24,080 nucleotides of DNA from a virus. The notes under the pieces were generated by a model. The model had not been told where the DNA came from. It did no database searches and saw nothing but the letters and a program-made list of their open reading frames with translations. The stretch is from positions 1-24,080 of IMG/VR virus record IMGVR_UViG_3300019776_000811, one strand, 5' to 3'. Each line of letters begins with the position of its first letter. Position 1 is the stretch's first letter. Shown here piece after piece: positions 4,240 to 24,002 of the stretch. Position numbers and translations under genes: made by a program.

Positions 4240-6461
4240 GTCAGCACCCCTTCGCGCATCTGGCGCCGAATCTGCGCCTGCATTTCGGCGTTGTTGCGGG
4301 CCAGCGCGGCCGACACTTCGGCGCGGCTGACGCCCTGGCCGACGTTGAGCGTCTGGCCGCTGAAGTCGAAGGCCACGCCGCGGCCCGAGCCGGCCGCGCC
4401 AGCTTCGGCCTTGGTGAGCACGCGCTCGCCCTCGTGCAGCACGGCGGGGAAGTTGTCGTAGGGCACGTAGGGCAGGCCGTTGGCGTAGCCGCTCACACCC
4501 TTCAGCCACGACACGCCCATGGCCAGCAGGCTGGTGCCGCCGGCGCCCTTGCCGCCCGGCAGGAAGTCGGCAATCGACATGCGGATCTGCGCGCGGATGT
4601 ACTCTTCGGCCATGTAGGTGAACAGGTCCGAGAAGCTCAGCTTGCCGGTCTTCACGAACGTGACCAGGGCGTCTTCCAGCCGCTGCAGCGCGCCGCCGAC
4701 CAAGTCTTCGGTGGACTTGGCCGCATTGGCCGCGCCCTCGGCGTAGGCTTCAAAGGCGCGCCGGGCGCCTTCGGCCGACGAGCCCGCCAGTTCGCGCTCG
4801 CGCGCCTCCAGGTCGTCCAGCGCGGCGTTGAGCTTGGCGCGCATGGTCTCGAACTGCTTGATGACTTCGGGCAGGGTGTCTTGTGTGGCGTCGCCCAGGG
4901 CCTTGATGGCCAGCGCGTCCAACTTGCGCAGCTCGGTCACGCGGCGCTGTTGCGTGGCGTTGAGGGCCAGCATCTTGGTCTGATCGCTCAGCGTCTGCAC
5001 CAAGGCCATGCCCTGCGTCTGCGAGTCGCCCTGCCTGGCTCGCTCGGCCTCGATGCGCGCGGTCTGTTCTGCAAAGTCCTTCAGCTGCCGCTCTTTGGTC
5101 TCGACCATCTCCAGCTTCGAGATCCACACCTCCGCGCCCGCCGCCACGCCTTTCTGGGCCGCCTCCAGGCGCAACATCTCGAAGCGGTTCTTGGTTTGCT
5201 GCTCGTACTGCCGCTGCAGCGACTCGATGAACTTGTCGCCCTCGCGGCCCATGCCCGACTCTGACTCCGGCGGCCTGAAGTTCGGCGCCTTCAGCTTGTT
5301 GGCCAGGTCGGGGTTGACAAAGCCCCGCCCACCACCCGCGCCGCCGTTCTGGGCGTCGAACCGGGCCTGCAGGCCGCGCGTGAATGCGGTGCCGTCGTAA
5401 TTCCACAGGTCGACGTAGCGCTTGTTGGCCGCCTCCACGGTGGCGTTGCGCTCCTGCAGCGCCTGCGCCAGAGCCTTGCGCGGGCCGTCAAAGGCCAGGC
5501 CAGCCGGGCCGCCGTTGCTGAGGAACGTGCCCAGCACTTTCAGGTCGGCAAACACCGCCTCGAAGCTGCCGCCGAGTGCGCGCACCGTCTTGATCAAGCC
5601 CGTGACGGCTTCGACCGCATAGCCCATGGCCAGGGCCACGCCCTGCGCCCACGTGCGCAAGGCGTTGTTGGCGGACAGGTCGTCCACCGCGCCCTTCAGG
5701 CCGCCGGTGGATTTCGCCGAAGACAGCATCTGCTCGGCGAACGCACTCATCACCGGCAGCAGCTCGAACGCAATGCGCTTGTAGATGCCGCCCTGCGCGG
5801 CCTGCAGGCGCACCAGGGTCTTCTCGTAGGCGTCGGCCTGTTGCGCCTGCTCGGTGGTGACCTTGGCCTGCAGCTCGCCCGCCTCGGCCAGGTCTTTCAT
5901 CACCGGCAACAGGTTGGCGCCGCCCTTGCCCAACAGCGCCTGCAGCGCGGCCACCTTGTCGGCGCCATCGGCATAGCTGGCCTGGGCGCGGGCGATCTTC
6001 TCGAAGACTTCCGCGGGGCTGGCGTTCTTCAAGTCGGCGGTGCTGATACCCAGCGACGCAAAAGCCGCGGCGGTGTTCTTGCCGCCGGCCTGCGCGTCGA
6101 CCATGGCCTTGCTGAGCTTTTGCAGACCGCCGGCCAGCGACTCGGCGTCGGTGCCGCTGAGCTTGGCAATGCTGGCCAGGCCGGACAGGCTCTCGACCGT
6201 GGAGCCCGTGCGCTCGGACAGCTGCTGCAGGCCGGCGGCCGACTTGATGACGCCCTCGATCTGCGAGCGCGCCTTGTCCAGCGTCAGGCCCACCAGCACG
6301 CCCGCGCCCAAGCTCTTCAGCGAAGTCCCCACCACATCGAACGCGCGCTGCATCTGCGCGGCGTTGCGCTCGGCGATCTGGGCCACCTTGCCCATGTCGC
6401 TCTGAAACCGCGCGACGTTGGCCGCGACCTCGACAACCAGCGAACCCAGTGCACCAGCCAT
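4236..6461 (-). CDS. Tail tape measure protein
   Basis: This is a 741-residue protein, the longest of the tail genes before the J-like protein and directly downstream of the tail chaperone pair, as in lambda (G/GT then H). The first 200 residues have the phage tape-measure pattern of repeated Ala-rich amphipathic helices (VARFQSDMGKVAQIAERNAAQ; ERTGSTVESLSGLASIAKLSG). The middle has long charged helices. Near residues 600-640 is the lambda-tape-measure C-terminal signature (LVTFVKTGKLSFSDLFTYM followed by IRAQIRMSIADF). In this class the length fixes tail length at roughly 0.15 nm per residue, so a tail near 110 nm is expected. It starts 1 base after the end of the GT frame. Identification is confident. 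Confidence 0.95.
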   Translation of the reverse strand: MAGALGSLVVEVAANVARFQSDMGKVAQIAERNAAQMQRAFDVVGTSLKSLGAGVLVGLTLDKARSQIEGVIKSAAGLQQLSERTGSTVESLSGLASIAKLSGTDAESLAGGLQKLSKAMVDAQAGGKNTAAAFASLGISTADLKNASPAEVFEKIARAQASYADGADKVAALQALLGKGGANLLPVMKDLAEAGELQAKVTTEQAQQADAYEKTLVRLQAAQGGIYKRIAFELLPVMSAFAEQMLSSAKSTGGLKGAVDDLSANNALRTWAQGVALAMGYAVEAVTGLIKTVRALGGSFEAVFADLKVLGTFLSNGGPAGLAFDGPRKALAQALQERNATVEAANKRYVDLWNYDGTAFTRGLQARFDAQNGGAGGGRGFVNPDLANKLKAPNFRPPESESGMGREGDKFIESLQRQYEQQTKNRFEMLRLEAAQKGVAAGAEVWISKLEMVETKERQLKDFAEQTARIEAERARQGDSQTQGMALVQTLSDQTKMLALNATQQRRVTELRKLDALAIKALGDATQDTLPEVIKQFETMRAKLNAALDDLEARERELAGSSAEGARRAFEAYAEGAANAAKSTEDLVGGALQRLEDALVTFVKTGKLSFSDLFTYMAEEYIRAQIRMSIADFLPGGKGAGGTSLLAMGVSWLKGVSGYANGLPYVPYDNFPAVLHEGERVLTKAEAGAAGSGRGVAFDFSGQTLNVGQGVSRAEVSAALARNNAEMQAQIRRQMREGVLT

Positions 6462-21289: not shown

Positions 21290-21583
21290 TCAGGCCCACA
21301 GCCTGAAGCAGTCGATCACCATCACGTGCGGGGCCTCGTCGCCCTCGGCGGGCGGCTGCGCGGCCACCACCACCGCGGCAGGGCGGCCCGGGCCGCTGCG
21401 CACGGGCTCGGCCACATCGTCGGCCGGCGCCGCCTGCCTGAGCCAGCCGCGCTGGATCAAGCGGCTGGCGGTGTAGCGGCCCACGTCGTAGCCCACCTGG
21501 GCCCGCTCACAGACATCGCGCACCGTGCCCGGCGTGGCCGCCGCGGCCATCAAGGCATGCGCCACCTCGCCCAGCGGCCGCAT
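21290..21583 (-). CDS. Winged-helix-like phage regulator
   Basis: This 97-residue protein starts RPLGEVAHALMAAAATPGTV followed by RDVCERAQVGYDVGRYTASR and LIQRGWLRQA. Helix-turn-helix then a beta wing fits a winged-helix fold: the TVRDVCERAQVGYDVGRYTA part would be the HTH. The second half is Pro/Ala/Asp-rich and ends with a hydrophobic MVIDCFRLW. It follows the Cro-like gene with a one-base overlap (TGATG), so the two are made from the same mRNA. A role as a second early repressor or replication-initiation cofactor is possible. No named family was recognised. Confidence 0.65.
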   Translation of the reverse strand: MRPLGEVAHALMAAAATPGTVRDVCERAQVGYDVGRYTASRLIQRGWLRQAAPADDVAEPVRSGPGRPAAVVVAAQPPAEGDEAPHVMVIDCFRLWA

Positions 21584-21843
21584 CAGGCAGCGGCCTGGCT
21601 GTCGGCGGCGTTGAGCGTGCTCAACGCGGCCGGGCCCTGGGGTGCCACCATCGGCGCCCCTACCGCGCCGGCCTGCAATGCGTGCAGCTCCAGCAGCTTG
21701 CGGTAGCTCCGGCTCATGATGTCTTTGACCTCACCACGCACCACCTTGCTGATCGTCGACTGCGGAATGCCAGTGCATTCGGCAATCACCGACTGGGTGA
21801 GGCCTCGCTGCATCAGCGCTTGGATCAGGTCGCGTGCGTCCAT
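21583..21843 (-). CDS. Cro-like HTH transcriptional regulator
   Basis: This 86-residue protein has a clear N-terminal helix-turn-helix: ARDLIQALMQRGLTQSVIAE followed by CTGIPQSTISKVVRGEVKDI. The C-terminal part is Ala-rich and probably disordered. It is divergently placed to a CI-like repressor across a short control region, which is the classic Cro position, and leads the early replication operon. In lambda-type switches Cro shuts off the repressor promoter and later its own. An AAAGGA ribosome site lies about 11 bases before the ATG, and a plausible promoter is found upstream. Confidence 0.8.
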   Translation of the reverse strand: MDARDLIQALMQRGLTQSVIAECTGIPQSTISKVVRGEVKDIMSRSYRKLLELHALQAGAVGAPMVAPQGPAALSTLNAADSQAAA

Positions 21844-21846
21844 CGA

Positions 21847-21860
21847 TGAAAGATTCCTTT
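21847..21860. promoter_or_regulatory. Candidate operator copy 1 (14-base motif near the early promoter)
   Basis: TGAAAGATTCCTTT here matches TGAAAGATTCTTTT at 23574-23587 in 13 of 14 positions. The core GAAAGATTC has a GAA...TTC dyad. It overlaps the Cro-gene ribosome site region. Confidence 0.4.
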
Positions 21861-21866
21861 GCGACT

Positions 21867-21894
21867 ATTGTGCCATTCTTAAACGACTATGCAA
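21867..21894 (-). promoter_or_regulatory. Leftward early promoter (PR-like) for the Cro-like operon
   Basis: On the minus strand a -35 TTGCAT (21894-21889) and a -10 CACAAT (21872-21867) are separated by 16 bases. Transcription would start near 21860 and give a short leader with AAAGGA before the Cro-like ATG. Two direct CGACTAT copies lie at 21862 and 21884, within the promoter, and may be operator half-sites. Confidence 0.55.
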
Positions 21895-22560
21895 CCGCGC
21901 TTAAATGCAGCCGTGAGCAAACCTGTAGACACCTTCGGCCAGCGCCTGAAGTTGGCGCGCCTTCAGCGCGGCCTGACACAGCCGCAGCTGGCCAAAGCCG
22001 CAGGGCTGAAGCAGCCCAACATTTCCAAGCTGGAACGCGAATCCACGATGGCCACGACCGGCATGGCCCGGCTGGCTGCTGCGCTTGGGGTGTCGCCTCG
22101 ATGGCTTGAGTTTGGCGATGTGCAAGAGCCCGATTGGGCCCAGCGCCCGGGCCATGACAACGGCCGCCGCCGGGGCGGAGTCGCTCTTGTGTTGAGCGAC
22201 CAGCCGGCGCCTGATTACGTTCCTGTCATCACCTGGGAACTAGTCTTGAACACACCTTTGCCACCGCGTTTTGCCGTGTCGATGCCCGACGACTCAATGA
22301 CCCCCTGGCTTCGCGCCGCAGACCTGGTGCGGTTCGCTACGGGCTTGCCCGCGCGCCCAGGCGATGTCGTGCTGGTGTCCGATGGGCAGGGCGGCCTGTA
22401 CGTGCGCAGCTACCGCGAACGTCGCCCAGGCCACTGGGTAGCCGCGCCAATGAACACGGCTTACCATGAGCTCGATTCGCAGCGCGACGACTTGGTCATC
22501 GTGGGCGTCTTTACGGGCATGGATCGATGCCTGAACAACGACAGGGGATCTCCGTCATGA
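21889..22560 (+). CDS. CI-like prophage repressor (HTH + S24 peptidase-like domain)
   Basis: This is a 223-residue repressor. Its N-terminal HTH (TFGQRLKLARLQRGLTQPQL, then AKAAGLKQPNISKLERE, residues about 15-52) is of the XRE type. Residues about 110-210 match a LexA/CI S24 fold: SMPDDSMTPWLRAADLVRFA with Ser136, then PARPGDVVLV and GGLYVRSY. Two features suggest weak or absent RecA-driven self-cleavage: Arg173 stands where the catalytic Lys is expected, and the linker (about 75-110) has no Ala-Gly or Cys-Gly. No Shine-Dalgarno is visible before the ATG at 21889 or the alternative GTG at 21913, so the start is uncertain and the mRNA may be leaderless, as for lambda cI. The 3' end overlaps the lipoprotein gene by 4 bases. 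Confidence 0.88.
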   Translation: MQPRLNAAVSKPVDTFGQRLKLARLQRGLTQPQLAKAAGLKQPNISKLERESTMATTGMARLAAALGVSPRWLEFGDVQEPDWAQRPGHDNGRRRGGVALVLSDQPAPDYVPVITWELVLNTPLPPRFAVSMPDDSMTPWLRAADLVRFATGLPARPGDVVLVSDGQGGLYVRSYRERRPGHWVAAPMNTAYHELDSQRDDLVIVGVFTGMDRCLNNDRGSPS

Positions 22561-23462
22561 CGGACTGGTGGTTAGGCTGTACGAGGTCACACCTCATCCG
22601 CCCCACGCACCTCCTTCTGCTGTTGTGCGCAAGCGCACTGGCAGGCTGTACGTCTTTGCCCTACTCACCACAGCCGAGGAACTTTGATCGGGGCCTGGAG
22701 GCGCTTGCCCAACTGGACTACGAGGTCGCGTATCGCTTTCTGGAACAACCGAGCCTAGGAACCGAGGCGGACGTGCTGCAGCTCATGAGGCAGAAGCCCG
22801 AACTTCTGGCCGCAGCTGAGCAGACTTTCTCTACGCAGGCCTTGGCAGCGTCTATCGCTCGCTATGGCCGAGCCGAGTCATTCCGCATCGAGCACTCCCG
22901 CCTTCAGCGGTTCGCCGTCTACTCATCTGCAGACCGGTTCGACGTTGCAAGTACAGCGTTCGCGGCCCTTTATCCGCAGGAGCTGGTTCAGTATCACGCC
23001 AAGGAGGCCGAGCGCGCTCGCGTGGCACGCCTTCCAGAGGCCGAGCAACAAGCCTACTGGGCAGATTCGTTTCGACGAAGCGTCGAGGCTGCCACGGTTC
23101 GAGGCGTCATCTTGAGCGCGCAACACATTGACGAATCGAACCCAGGCACGAGATCAGGCGCAGCTTGGGGTGCGGCCATTGGTCAGGCCGCCTACATCGA
23201 CAGCGCTTCCTGGCGTACCTATCGAGCCTCTTCTCAGCTTGCTGCTGGCCTACTCGGCGCAATGCTTGGTAGCACGCTGGATCAGAGGCCCACAAAGCAG
23301 TACCTCAAGGTCTACTTTGTGAAGACGCCGGCAGGCGAGACCAAGCGGATCGATGAGCAAGCCAAGGACGCGATCTTGCTTCCTGTCGGTTCATGCCTTG
23401 AGTACCGCGAACCCTTTCACCTGGTCCTGCTACCTGACACCTTGTGCACTGCACAGCGGTAG
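22557..23462 (+). CDS. Lipoprotein in the rex position, candidate lysogenic-conversion / exclusion gene
   Basis: This 301-residue protein starts at an ATG overlapping the repressor stop (ATGA), with an AGGGGA site 8 bases before it. The N-terminus has a hydrophobic core (LLLLLCASALAGC) with lipobox LAGC, lipid Cys at residue 31. Thr at +2 suggests outer-membrane sorting. A helical middle part follows (LEALAQLDYEVAYRFLEQ, RFAVYSSADRFDVASTAF, EQQAYWADSFRRSVEAA). Near residues 200-245 are two Gly/Ala-rich glycine-zipper-like stretches (GAAWGAAIGQAA; AAGLLGAMLGS) and a C-terminal YLKVYFVKTPAG strand. Base composition is visibly lower in GC than the phage genes. It was not recognised as a named family. 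Co-expression with the repressor suggests it acts in the lysogen, perhaps in superinfection exclusion; this is an inference. Confidence 0.75.
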   Translation: MTDWWLGCTRSHLIRPTHLLLLLCASALAGCTSLPYSPQPRNFDRGLEALAQLDYEVAYRFLEQPSLGTEADVLQLMRQKPELLAAAEQTFSTQALAASIARYGRAESFRIEHSRLQRFAVYSSADRFDVASTAFAALYPQELVQYHAKEAERARVARLPEAEQQAYWADSFRRSVEAATVRGVILSAQHIDESNPGTRSGAAWGAAIGQAAYIDSASWRTYRASSQLAAGLLGAMLGSTLDQRPTKQYLKVYFVKTPAGETKRIDEQAKDAILLPVGSCLEYREPFHLVLLPDTLCTAQR

Positions 23463-23471
23463 CACCGTGCA

Positions 23472-23535
23472 GCCCAACCTCTCCCTCAAGCTGACCGGGC
23501 TGCCGCCGCCCGCGCCGCGCGCTGAAGCGTTGAAG
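23472..23535 (+). repeat. attC-like degenerate element after the lipoprotein gene
   Basis: It begins with GCCCAAC, matching the RYYYAAC integron core, continues CTCTCCCTCAAGCTGACC, like the left arm of known attC sites, and ends GCGTTGAAG, close to GTTRRRY. The 64-base length fits attC. Inner pairing is imperfect. It starts 10 bases after the lipoprotein stop codon. The call is tentative. Confidence 0.3.
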
Positions 23536-23567: not shown

Positions 23568-23596
23568 TTGACCTGAAAGATTCTTTTAGGAATACT
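23568..23596 (+). promoter_or_regulatory. Rightward phage promoter (PL-like position)
   Basis: A -35 TTGACC (23568-23573), a 17-base spacer and a -10 AATACT (23591-23596) form a plausible sigma-70 promoter. The spacer holds the second copy of the 14-base motif shared with the Cro control region. The next gene starts 29 bases after the -10. Confidence 0.65.
23574..23587. promoter_or_regulatory. Candidate operator copy 2 (14-base motif in the promoter spacer)
   Basis: TGAAAGATTCTTTT lies between the -35 and -10 of the rightward promoter, where a bound repressor would block RNA polymerase. It matches the copy at 21847-21860 in 13 of 14 positions. Confidence 0.4.
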
Positions 23597-23624: not shown

Positions 23625-24002
23625 ATGTCACTGACCACCACCGCCCCAACGCCCGAGCGCGCGACCTTTCGCGGCACGTTGGACGAGCCGGCCACCAAAG
23701 CCGCCACACTGGCCCACTACCGGGCCGAAGCCGCGAAGGCCGCTGACAGCCACATGCTCAGCATGCGCGTGCCCGAAGCCACGCTGCATCCCAGCCGGGC
23801 AGCGCCCAAGTGCAGCGACTGCACAGCCAAGACCAAAGCAGGCTTCTGTGACCACCCGGCCATGCCGGTTAGTTTGGTCACAGGCAACCCCTTGATTGCC
23901 TGCCAAGAGGCCCGCGTGGAAGAAGGCGGCGCGTGCGGTTCAGCCGCCGCGCTGTTCGTGCGCCGCGATGGCAGCGGCAATGCCACCGGGAGCGCCGCAT
24001 GA
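23625..24002 (+). CDS. Cys-rich small phage protein, function unknown
   Basis: This 125-residue protein is the first gene of the rightward operon; its ATG follows a GGAG site at 8 bases. The N-terminal half is an Ala/Glu-rich helix (ATKAATLAHYRAEAAKAA). The second half has CSDCTAKTKAGFCDHP (residues 63-78) with Cys63, Cys66, Cys75 and His77, plus Cys93 and Cys104, which looks like a small zinc site. The C-terminus is low-complexity. The family is not recognised. It overlaps the next gene by 4 bases (ATGA). A regulatory or recombination accessory role would fit an early-operon position but is not shown. Confidence 0.65.
   Translation: MSLTTTAPTPERATFRGTLDEPATKAATLAHYRAEAAKAADSHMLSMRVPEATLHPSRAAPKCSDCTAKTKAGFCDHPAMPVSLVTGNPLIACQEARVEEGGACGSAAALFVRRDGSGNATGSAA

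What the first reader, a model, noticed from the sequence alone, without database searches (positions are those of the whole stretch)
22557..23462. Lipoprotein gene in the lambda rex position, coupled to the prophage repressor
The gene overlaps the repressor stop by 4 bases, so it should be expressed in the lysogen. It encodes a secreted, lipid-anchored protein with glycine-zipper-like segments, and its composition differs from the phage genes. In lambda this slot carries rexAB, and other temperate phages place exclusion or conversion genes here. An unrecognised lipoprotein here is a good candidate for a new superinfection exclusion or cell-surface conversion factor.
Basis: partly seen in the sequence, partly recalled or inferred. 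Interest (0 to 1): 0.7.

Follow-up and report, generated by a model that had tools for sequence, protein, structure and literature searches.

The report
SlyB-like lipoprotein in prophage rex slot
A temperate phage of Burkholderiales-type bacteria carries, between its repressor gene and a second repressor-type operator (where lambda keeps rexAB), a gene for an outer-membrane-type lipoprotein from an unnamed family that also sits on plasmids, chromosomes and integron cassettes, and that probably changes the lysogen's surface, perhaps to shut out rival phages.

Summary
ORF 22557-23462 overlaps the cI stop by ATGA, has a ribosome-binding site and encodes a lipoprotein (lipobox LAGC, Cys31). That gives cro-OR-cI-X-OL/pL-early gene, lambda's layout. 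Exact 16-19-bp repeats bracket cI and its cargo slot in six related phages, whose slot contents differ.

The protein is not an orphan. Full-length relatives lie on an Acidovorax plasmid and a Burkholderiales chromosome. Related glycine-zipper domains occur on Azospirillum plasmids, on scattered Comamonadaceae-type chromosomes (7 of 401 genomes) and inside two integron cassette arrays, where the gene is paired with an RcsF-like lipoprotein. The C-terminal domain is distantly SlyB/17-kDa-antigen-like. No Pfam, NCBIfam, PHROG or PADLOC family covers it.

Best reading: a lysogen-expressed, horizontally acquired envelope lipoprotein, most likely a superinfection-exclusion or OM-protection factor. 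Exclusion is untested. A half-attC after the stop and a GTTAGGC core near the start hint, without proof, at capture from an integron.

The parts
21583..21843 (-). Cro-like HTH regulator, divergent from cI
   Evidence: phrog_6831 E=3e-12, HTH_3 E=2e-5
21847..21860 (.). Operator candidate in the cro-cI gap (OR-like), TGAAAGATTCCTTT
   Evidence: The only 14-mer of the gap with a copy (<=1 mismatch) elsewhere in the window
21889..22560 (+). CI-type repressor (HTH + S24 domain)
22543..22548 (+). Shine-Dalgarno-like AGGGGA, 8 nt before the lipoprotein ATG, inside cI
   Evidence: Sequence
22557..23462 (+). Lipoprotein gene; ATGA overlap with the cI stop
   Evidence: homologues
22557..22646 (+). Signal peptide (aa 1-30) ending in lipobox LAGC; lipidated Cys31 codon at 22647-22649
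   Evidence: Sequence; aligned with lipoboxes of L120, L116, L137, L138, L141
22571..22577 (+). GTTAGGC, matches the integron core-site consensus GTTRRRY (possible cassette left boundary)
   Evidence: 24 such sites on the + strand of 24 kb; 0.036 expected in 36 nt; hypothesis only
22596..22598 (+). ATC (Ile14): codon near which homologous proteins have their start Met; possible ancestral start
   Evidence: The lipobox Cys is residue 18 counted from here, close to the signal-peptide length of L120 and L116; inference
22764..23093 (+). N-terminal helical domain (aa ~70-179)
   Evidence: Single-sequence AlphaFold2, mean pLDDT mostly 70-90 per 10-residue block for aa 81-170; no PDB fold match
23103..23411 (+). 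Conserved C-terminal domain (aa 183-285): glycine-zipper helical hairpin + small beta region
   Evidence: 11-member alignment; profile match to SlyB/17-kDa-type domains
23148..23276 (+). Glycine-zipper hairpin (aa 198-240)
   Evidence: Invariant G201, G205, Y213, D215, Y222, G234, G238
23472..23495 (+). attC-like 5' half (R''-L'': GCCCAAC-N6-CTCAAGCTGAC), 9 nt after the stop codon; 3' half degenerate
   Evidence: Best attC sequence-model match in the whole window, E=0.027; 38 of 3.65 million background positions score as high; no match to the structured model
23568..23596 (+). pL-like promoter (TTGACC-17-AATACT) with operator palindrome CCTGAAAGATTCTTTTAGG (23572-23590) in its spacer: OL-like
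23625..24002 (+). Early gene downstream of the OL/pL-like site (position of lambda N); no family match

Best explanation
The gene is a lysogeny cargo gene (moron) of a temperate Burkholderiales-type tailed phage. It lies in the interval between cI and a second operator/promoter (OL/pL-like), is translated by coupling from the cI stop, and so is expected in the lysogen. It encodes an outer-membrane-type lipoprotein with a helical N-terminal domain and a C-terminal SlyB-like glycine-zipper hairpin plus beta region, from an unnamed accessory family that moves among phages, plasmids, chromosomes and integron cassettes. Most likely mechanism: the anchored protein oligomerises through its glycine zipper in the outer membrane around or against OM proteins, as SlyB does, and so hinders adsorption or DNA entry by other phages that use those proteins (superinfection exclusion). 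Shown: gene, ATGA overlap, lipobox, operator repeat, family membership and its mobile distribution. Inferred: lysogen expression, OM location, oligomerisation, exclusion.
For: Position: the operator 14-mer repeats only at OR and just past this gene, inside a promoter-like element. Exact 16-19-bp repeats bracket cI and the slot in L006, L028, L038, L069, L079 and L090, with unrelated cargo or none. Other slot products in this phage group are often envelope-directed: lipoprotein in L026/L029, exported proteins in L028 and L024, membrane-anchored Zn-ribbon proteins in L020 and L067. Family. SlyB-type domain: hhalign 97.8%, E=7.5e-13 against lipoproteins that pass Rick_17kDa_Anti or Gly-zipper_Omp cut-offs. 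Partner in integron cassettes is RcsF-like, E=4.7e-10. Precedents: Ltp lipoprotein in the lysogeny module, expressed in the prophage, blocks DNA injection (PMC3952083); T5 Llp jams FhuA (PMC9586334); Lpp lipoproteins of mEpimmI phages exclude phages (PMC11893012); SlyB rings encapsulate OM proteins (PMC13067283, PMC13082787).
Against: No expression or phage-challenge data. All relatives found lie outside phages: none in 50,697 phage records or in other viral contigs. PADLOC has no match. The SlyB link is profile-level only: the window protein alone does not reach Pfam, and the three SlyB-type comparators were themselves fetched by the family profile. The single-sequence fold of the C-terminal domain is poor.
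Confidence: 0.42

Rival explanations
1. Lysogenic conversion for envelope fitness rather than exclusion: the lipoprotein stabilises the outer membrane or OM proteins under stress, as SlyB does, which benefits the lysogen and thus the prophage.
For: SlyB-like domain; integron partner is RcsF-like, and RcsF and SlyB are both OM-stress lipoproteins that associate with OM proteins (PMC13067283). Relatives on chromosomes, plasmids and cassettes without phage genes beside them suit a general accessory function.
Against: Placement in the repressor operon is the classical place for exclusion or immunity functions; the window copy lacks the RcsF-like partner.
Confidence: 0.33
2. Neutral or recently captured passenger: an integron-type cassette or other mobile gene landed in a permissive slot between cI and OL and has no phage function yet.
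For: attC-like half site directly after the stop, GTTAGGC near the start, homologues in verified cassettes, N-terminal extension relative to homologues.
Against: Open frame intact over 301 codons with conserved lipobox and all invariant domain residues; neat ATGA coupling and RBS suggest selection for expression.
Confidence: 0.17
3. Repressor-modulating gene like phage 434 hex (overlaps cI, co-transcribed, stabilises the repressor).
For: Same overlap with cI and same inferred transcript (PMC3564112).
Against: An exported lipoprotein cannot contact the cytoplasmic repressor or RecA; the family occurs without cI.
Confidence: 0.03
4. Ordinary housekeeping lipoprotein picked up by chance, no link to the phage.
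For: Relatives on chromosomes, e.g. near ksgA-pdxA-surA-lptD in G291 and between hemW and hrcA in G792, as read from the ORF translations.
Against: Very sparse: strong matches in 7 of 401 and 1 of 399 genomes, at different sites; not a core gene.
Confidence: 0.05

Closest known systems
SlyB / 17-kDa surface antigen glycine-zipper lipoproteins (PF05433 and relatives)
   Same: Lipobox, two-helix glycine zipper followed by a short beta region; profile-profile match 97.8%, E=7.5e-13 over 94 columns
   Different: Window protein gives no Pfam match; only 3 of 11 family members reach E<=1, best 0.003; extra ~150-aa helical N-terminal domain; accessory distribution; family signature (D/E)S-pGt-GA-G-A-YxD and invariant C-terminal Cys residues
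Ltp superinfection-exclusion lipoprotein of S. thermophilus phage TP-J34
   Same: Lipoprotein gene in the lysogeny module, expressed from the prophage (PMC3952083)
   Different: Gram-positive host, no shared family; exclusion shown there, not here
lambda rexA-rexB
   Same: Same place: co-directional with cI, between cI and OL/pL
   Different: RexA is a DNA-binding protein (PMC11077077) and RexB an inner-membrane protein (own knowledge); no family match here; this is a single exported lipoprotein
Cor / Llp / mEpimmI Lpp exclusion lipoproteins
   Same: Phage-encoded Gram-negative lipoproteins acting at OM receptors (PMC9586334, PMC11893012)
   Different: mEpimmI Lpp genes lie in the structural gene cluster (PMC11893012); no family match; this protein is 301 aa and glycine-zippered
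Integron gene cassettes in phage genomes
   Same: attC-like half site and core-like GTTAGGC flank the gene; relatives are true cassettes
   Different: No complete attC here; published phage cassettes have detectable attC sites (PMC9892861)

Membership tests
Lambda-type rex slot (cI - cargo - OL/pL) | Gene co-directional with and adjacent to cI | tested here: met
   ATGA overlap 22557-22560
Lambda-type rex slot (cI - cargo - OL/pL) | Second copy of the repressor operator beyond the cargo gene, at an early promoter | tested here: met
   TGAAAGATTCYTTT only at 21847 and 23574, the latter inside TTGACC-17-AATACT; binding by CI itself not tested
Lambda-type rex slot (cI - cargo - OL/pL) | Transcribed with cI in the lysogen | not testable with these tools
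   No RNA data; no promoter-like site between 21780 and 23567 on the + strand
Bacterial lipoprotein | Signal peptide with lipobox [LVI][ASTVI][GAS]C | tested here: met
   L-A-G-C31 after a hydrophobic core; conserved in full-length homologues
SlyB / Rick_17kDa_Anti (PF05433) | Score above the Pfam gathering cut-off | tested here: not met
   No match for the window protein; best family member E=0.003
SlyB / Rick_17kDa_Anti (PF05433) | Glycine-zipper hairpin + C-terminal beta region, homologous at profile level | tested here: met
   hhalign 97.8%, E=7.5e-13; comparators pass PF05433/PF13488; comparators were fetched by the family profile, so some bias
YiaD glycine-zipper/OmpA lipoproteins (NF053611) | Score above the curated cut-off (175 bits) | tested here: not met
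   14.4 bits
RexA / RexB | Sequence similarity to Rex families | tested here: not met
   No such Pfam or PHROG match
Known anti-phage defence protein | Match to a PADLOC model | tested here: not met
   No match in 11 members
Superinfection-exclusion lipoprotein | Expression blocks adsorption or DNA entry of other phages | not testable with these tools
   Needs a bench experiment
Integron gene cassette | Gene followed by a complete attC (R''-L''...L'-R') that folds | tested here: not met
   Only the R''-L'' half at 23472-23495; structured model finds nothing there; fold z-score not significant
Integron gene cassette | Core site GTTRRRY at the cassette start | tested here: inconclusive
   GTTAGGC at 22571; ~3.6% chance in 36 nt

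The most novel reading that the evidence does not exclude
A temperate phage captured an integron gene cassette into its cI-OL interval: the cassette's own start codon decayed (ATG to ATC at 22596), the reading frame was fused to a phage start overlapping the cI stop, and an unnamed SlyB-like lipoprotein thereby became a lysogen-expressed, receptor-caging exclusion factor.
Probability: 0.15. Interest if true: 0.75.

Novelty: new variant of a known kind. Interest (0 to 1): 0.5.

Why it matters
It defines an unnamed family of mobile glycine-zipper lipoproteins shared by a prophage immunity region, plasmids and integron cassettes, and a cI-cargo-OL slot in Burkholderiales-type phages whose contents vary. 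If the lipoprotein excludes phages by caging or jamming OM proteins, it would link SlyB-type OM biology to superinfection exclusion and suggest that integrons feed phage cargo slots; both are directly testable.

Tried and rejected
Direct homologue search in phage records and viral contigs: none. First genome contigs pattern scan: none. Profile search over a phylum-wide sample: none. PDB by sequence and by fold: nothing credible; the best profile hits (viral fusion proteins, E=0.06-0.4) are short chance matches. Rfam: only chance hits in the window, none in L137. Complete attC in the window: rejected; the structured model's best window hit (4308-4357, E=0.007) lies inside the tape-measure gene and was treated as chance. 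Separate promoter for the lipoprotein: none seen. Statistical enrichment of signal peptides in the slot of relatives was not claimed: gene calls in these GC-rich contigs were too rough.

Full report
Observation. The ORF at 22557-23462 is real. Its ATG lies in ATGA with the stop of a CI-type repressor; AGGGGA sits 8 nt upstream. The predicted protein has a signal peptide ending in LAGC (Cys31), a helical N-terminal region (mean pLDDT mostly 70-90 per 10-residue block for aa 81-170 in a single-sequence model) and a C-terminal glycine-zipper domain. Its GC3 (67%) is far below most late genes (91-95%), though cI (73%) and the early gene (79%) are also low.

Rex position. The 14-mer TGAAAGATTCCTTT from the cro-cI gap (21847) recurs with one mismatch at 23574 and nowhere else in the window. 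There it is part of the 19-bp near-palindrome CCTGAAAGATTCTTTTAGG in the spacer of a promoter-like TTGACC-17-AATACT element, 111 bp after the lipoprotein stop and just before the next co-directional gene (23625-24002). This is lambda's cro-OR-cI-rex-OL/pL-N order. The window is a 24-kb viral contig; its terminase is 81% identical to that of a prophage in Mitsuaria sp. WAJ17, and other relatives are in Variovorax, Delftia, Rhizobacter and similar genera, so the host is probably in Burkholderiales. In relatives, exact repeats of 16-19 bp bracket cI and the slot in L006, L028, L038, L069, L079 and L090. In L038 the second copy lies about 60-80 bp past cI (slot empty); in L028 it follows an exported 137-aa protein. 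Other slot contents include a 233-aa lipoprotein (L026/L029), membrane-anchored zinc-ribbon proteins (L020, L067), a DEDDh exonuclease (L091) and LuxR-type regulators (L004, L016).

Family. No family library names the protein. Relatives were found stepwise: an Azospirillum plasmid, a Burkholderiales chromosome (G291), further Azospirillum plasmids and Acidovorax temperans plasmid pEP1, and 7 of 401 genomes in the Comamonadaceae-type family. The pEP1 and G291 proteins are lipoproteins homologous over nearly the full length of the window protein. The C-terminal domain has invariant G201, G205, Y213, D215, Y222, G234, G238, Y253, G260, G278 and C280. A profile of 11 members aligns with SlyB/17-kDa-type lipoprotein domains at 97.8% probability; those comparators pass PF05433 or PF13488, but they were fetched by the family profile, so some selection bias remains.

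Mobile setting. In two genomes (L137, L139) the gene lies in integron cassette arrays: canonical attC sites flank it, and it is preceded in the same cassette by an RcsF-like lipoprotein gene (NCBIfam RcsF E=4.7e-10; Pfam E=2e-6). In the Azospirillum plasmids and several chromosomes it is followed by another small lipoprotein gene. It is thus an accessory envelope gene of mobile elements, not a core gene.

Was the phage copy an integron cassette? Nine nt after its stop lies GCCCAAC-N6-CTCAAGCTGAC, the R''-L'' half of an attC. It is the best hit of an attC sequence model in the whole window (E=0.027), and 38 of 3.65 million background positions score as high, so about 6e-4 for a 60-nt 3' flank; this test was made after the site had been seen. 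GTTAGGC, a core-site match, lies at 22571 (about 3.6% by chance in 36 nt). Homologues start near the position where the phage gene has ATC (22596), so the first 13 residues look like an extension. But the 3' half of an attC is absent, the structured model and the fold give nothing, and no empty-site relative is known. I hold this as a hypothesis.

Function. Established precedents: the phage lipoproteins Ltp, Llp and mEpimmI Lpp exclude phages (PMC3952083, PMC9586334, PMC11893012), and SlyB forms rings around OM proteins (PMC13067283, PMC13082787). From these, the position and the domain, the most likely role is an OM-anchored exclusion factor that cages or jams OM proteins; the main rival is OM stabilisation that benefits the lysogen. 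Neither was tested here.

Verdict. Position and lipoprotein confirmed and strengthened; exclusion plausible but unproven; the family is unnamed, a variant of the known kind 'prophage-encoded envelope lipoprotein'.

Noticed in passing
L004:1925-2644, L016:1376-2137: Related prophages carry LuxR-type genes with an autoinducer-binding domain next to cI (Pfam Autoind_bind E=2.5e-7 and 5e-5), which might tie lysogeny to quorum sensing.
   Followed up: partly
L006, L028, L038, L069, L079, L090: Exact 16-19-bp operator-like repeats bracket cI and a variable cargo slot, empty in L038.
   Followed up: partly
L137:4567-5766, L139:564-1771: Integron cassette encoding an RcsF-like lipoprotein plus a SlyB-like glycine-zipper lipoprotein, nearly identical in two genomes.
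   Followed up: partly
window 21889-22560: The repressor has the S24 serine motif (DDSM) but appears to have Arg where the catalytic Lys is expected (YVRSY), and no Ala-Gly or Cys-Gly was seen in the linker: perhaps not self-cleaving.
   Followed up: no
L091:1476-2165: DEDDh exonuclease gene (E=1.8e-14) directly after cI; an exclusion gene in the repressor transcript of Pseudomonas phage Fc02 matches a DEDDh exonuclease family (PMC9936078).
   Followed up: no
L020:1339-1881, L067:1145-1819: cI-adjacent proteins with an N-terminal zinc ribbon and a membrane anchor in two related phages.
   Followed up: no
L029:2041-2742, L026:1973-2674: Unrelated 233-aa lipoprotein downstream of cI in two related phages; no Pfam family.
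   Followed up: partly
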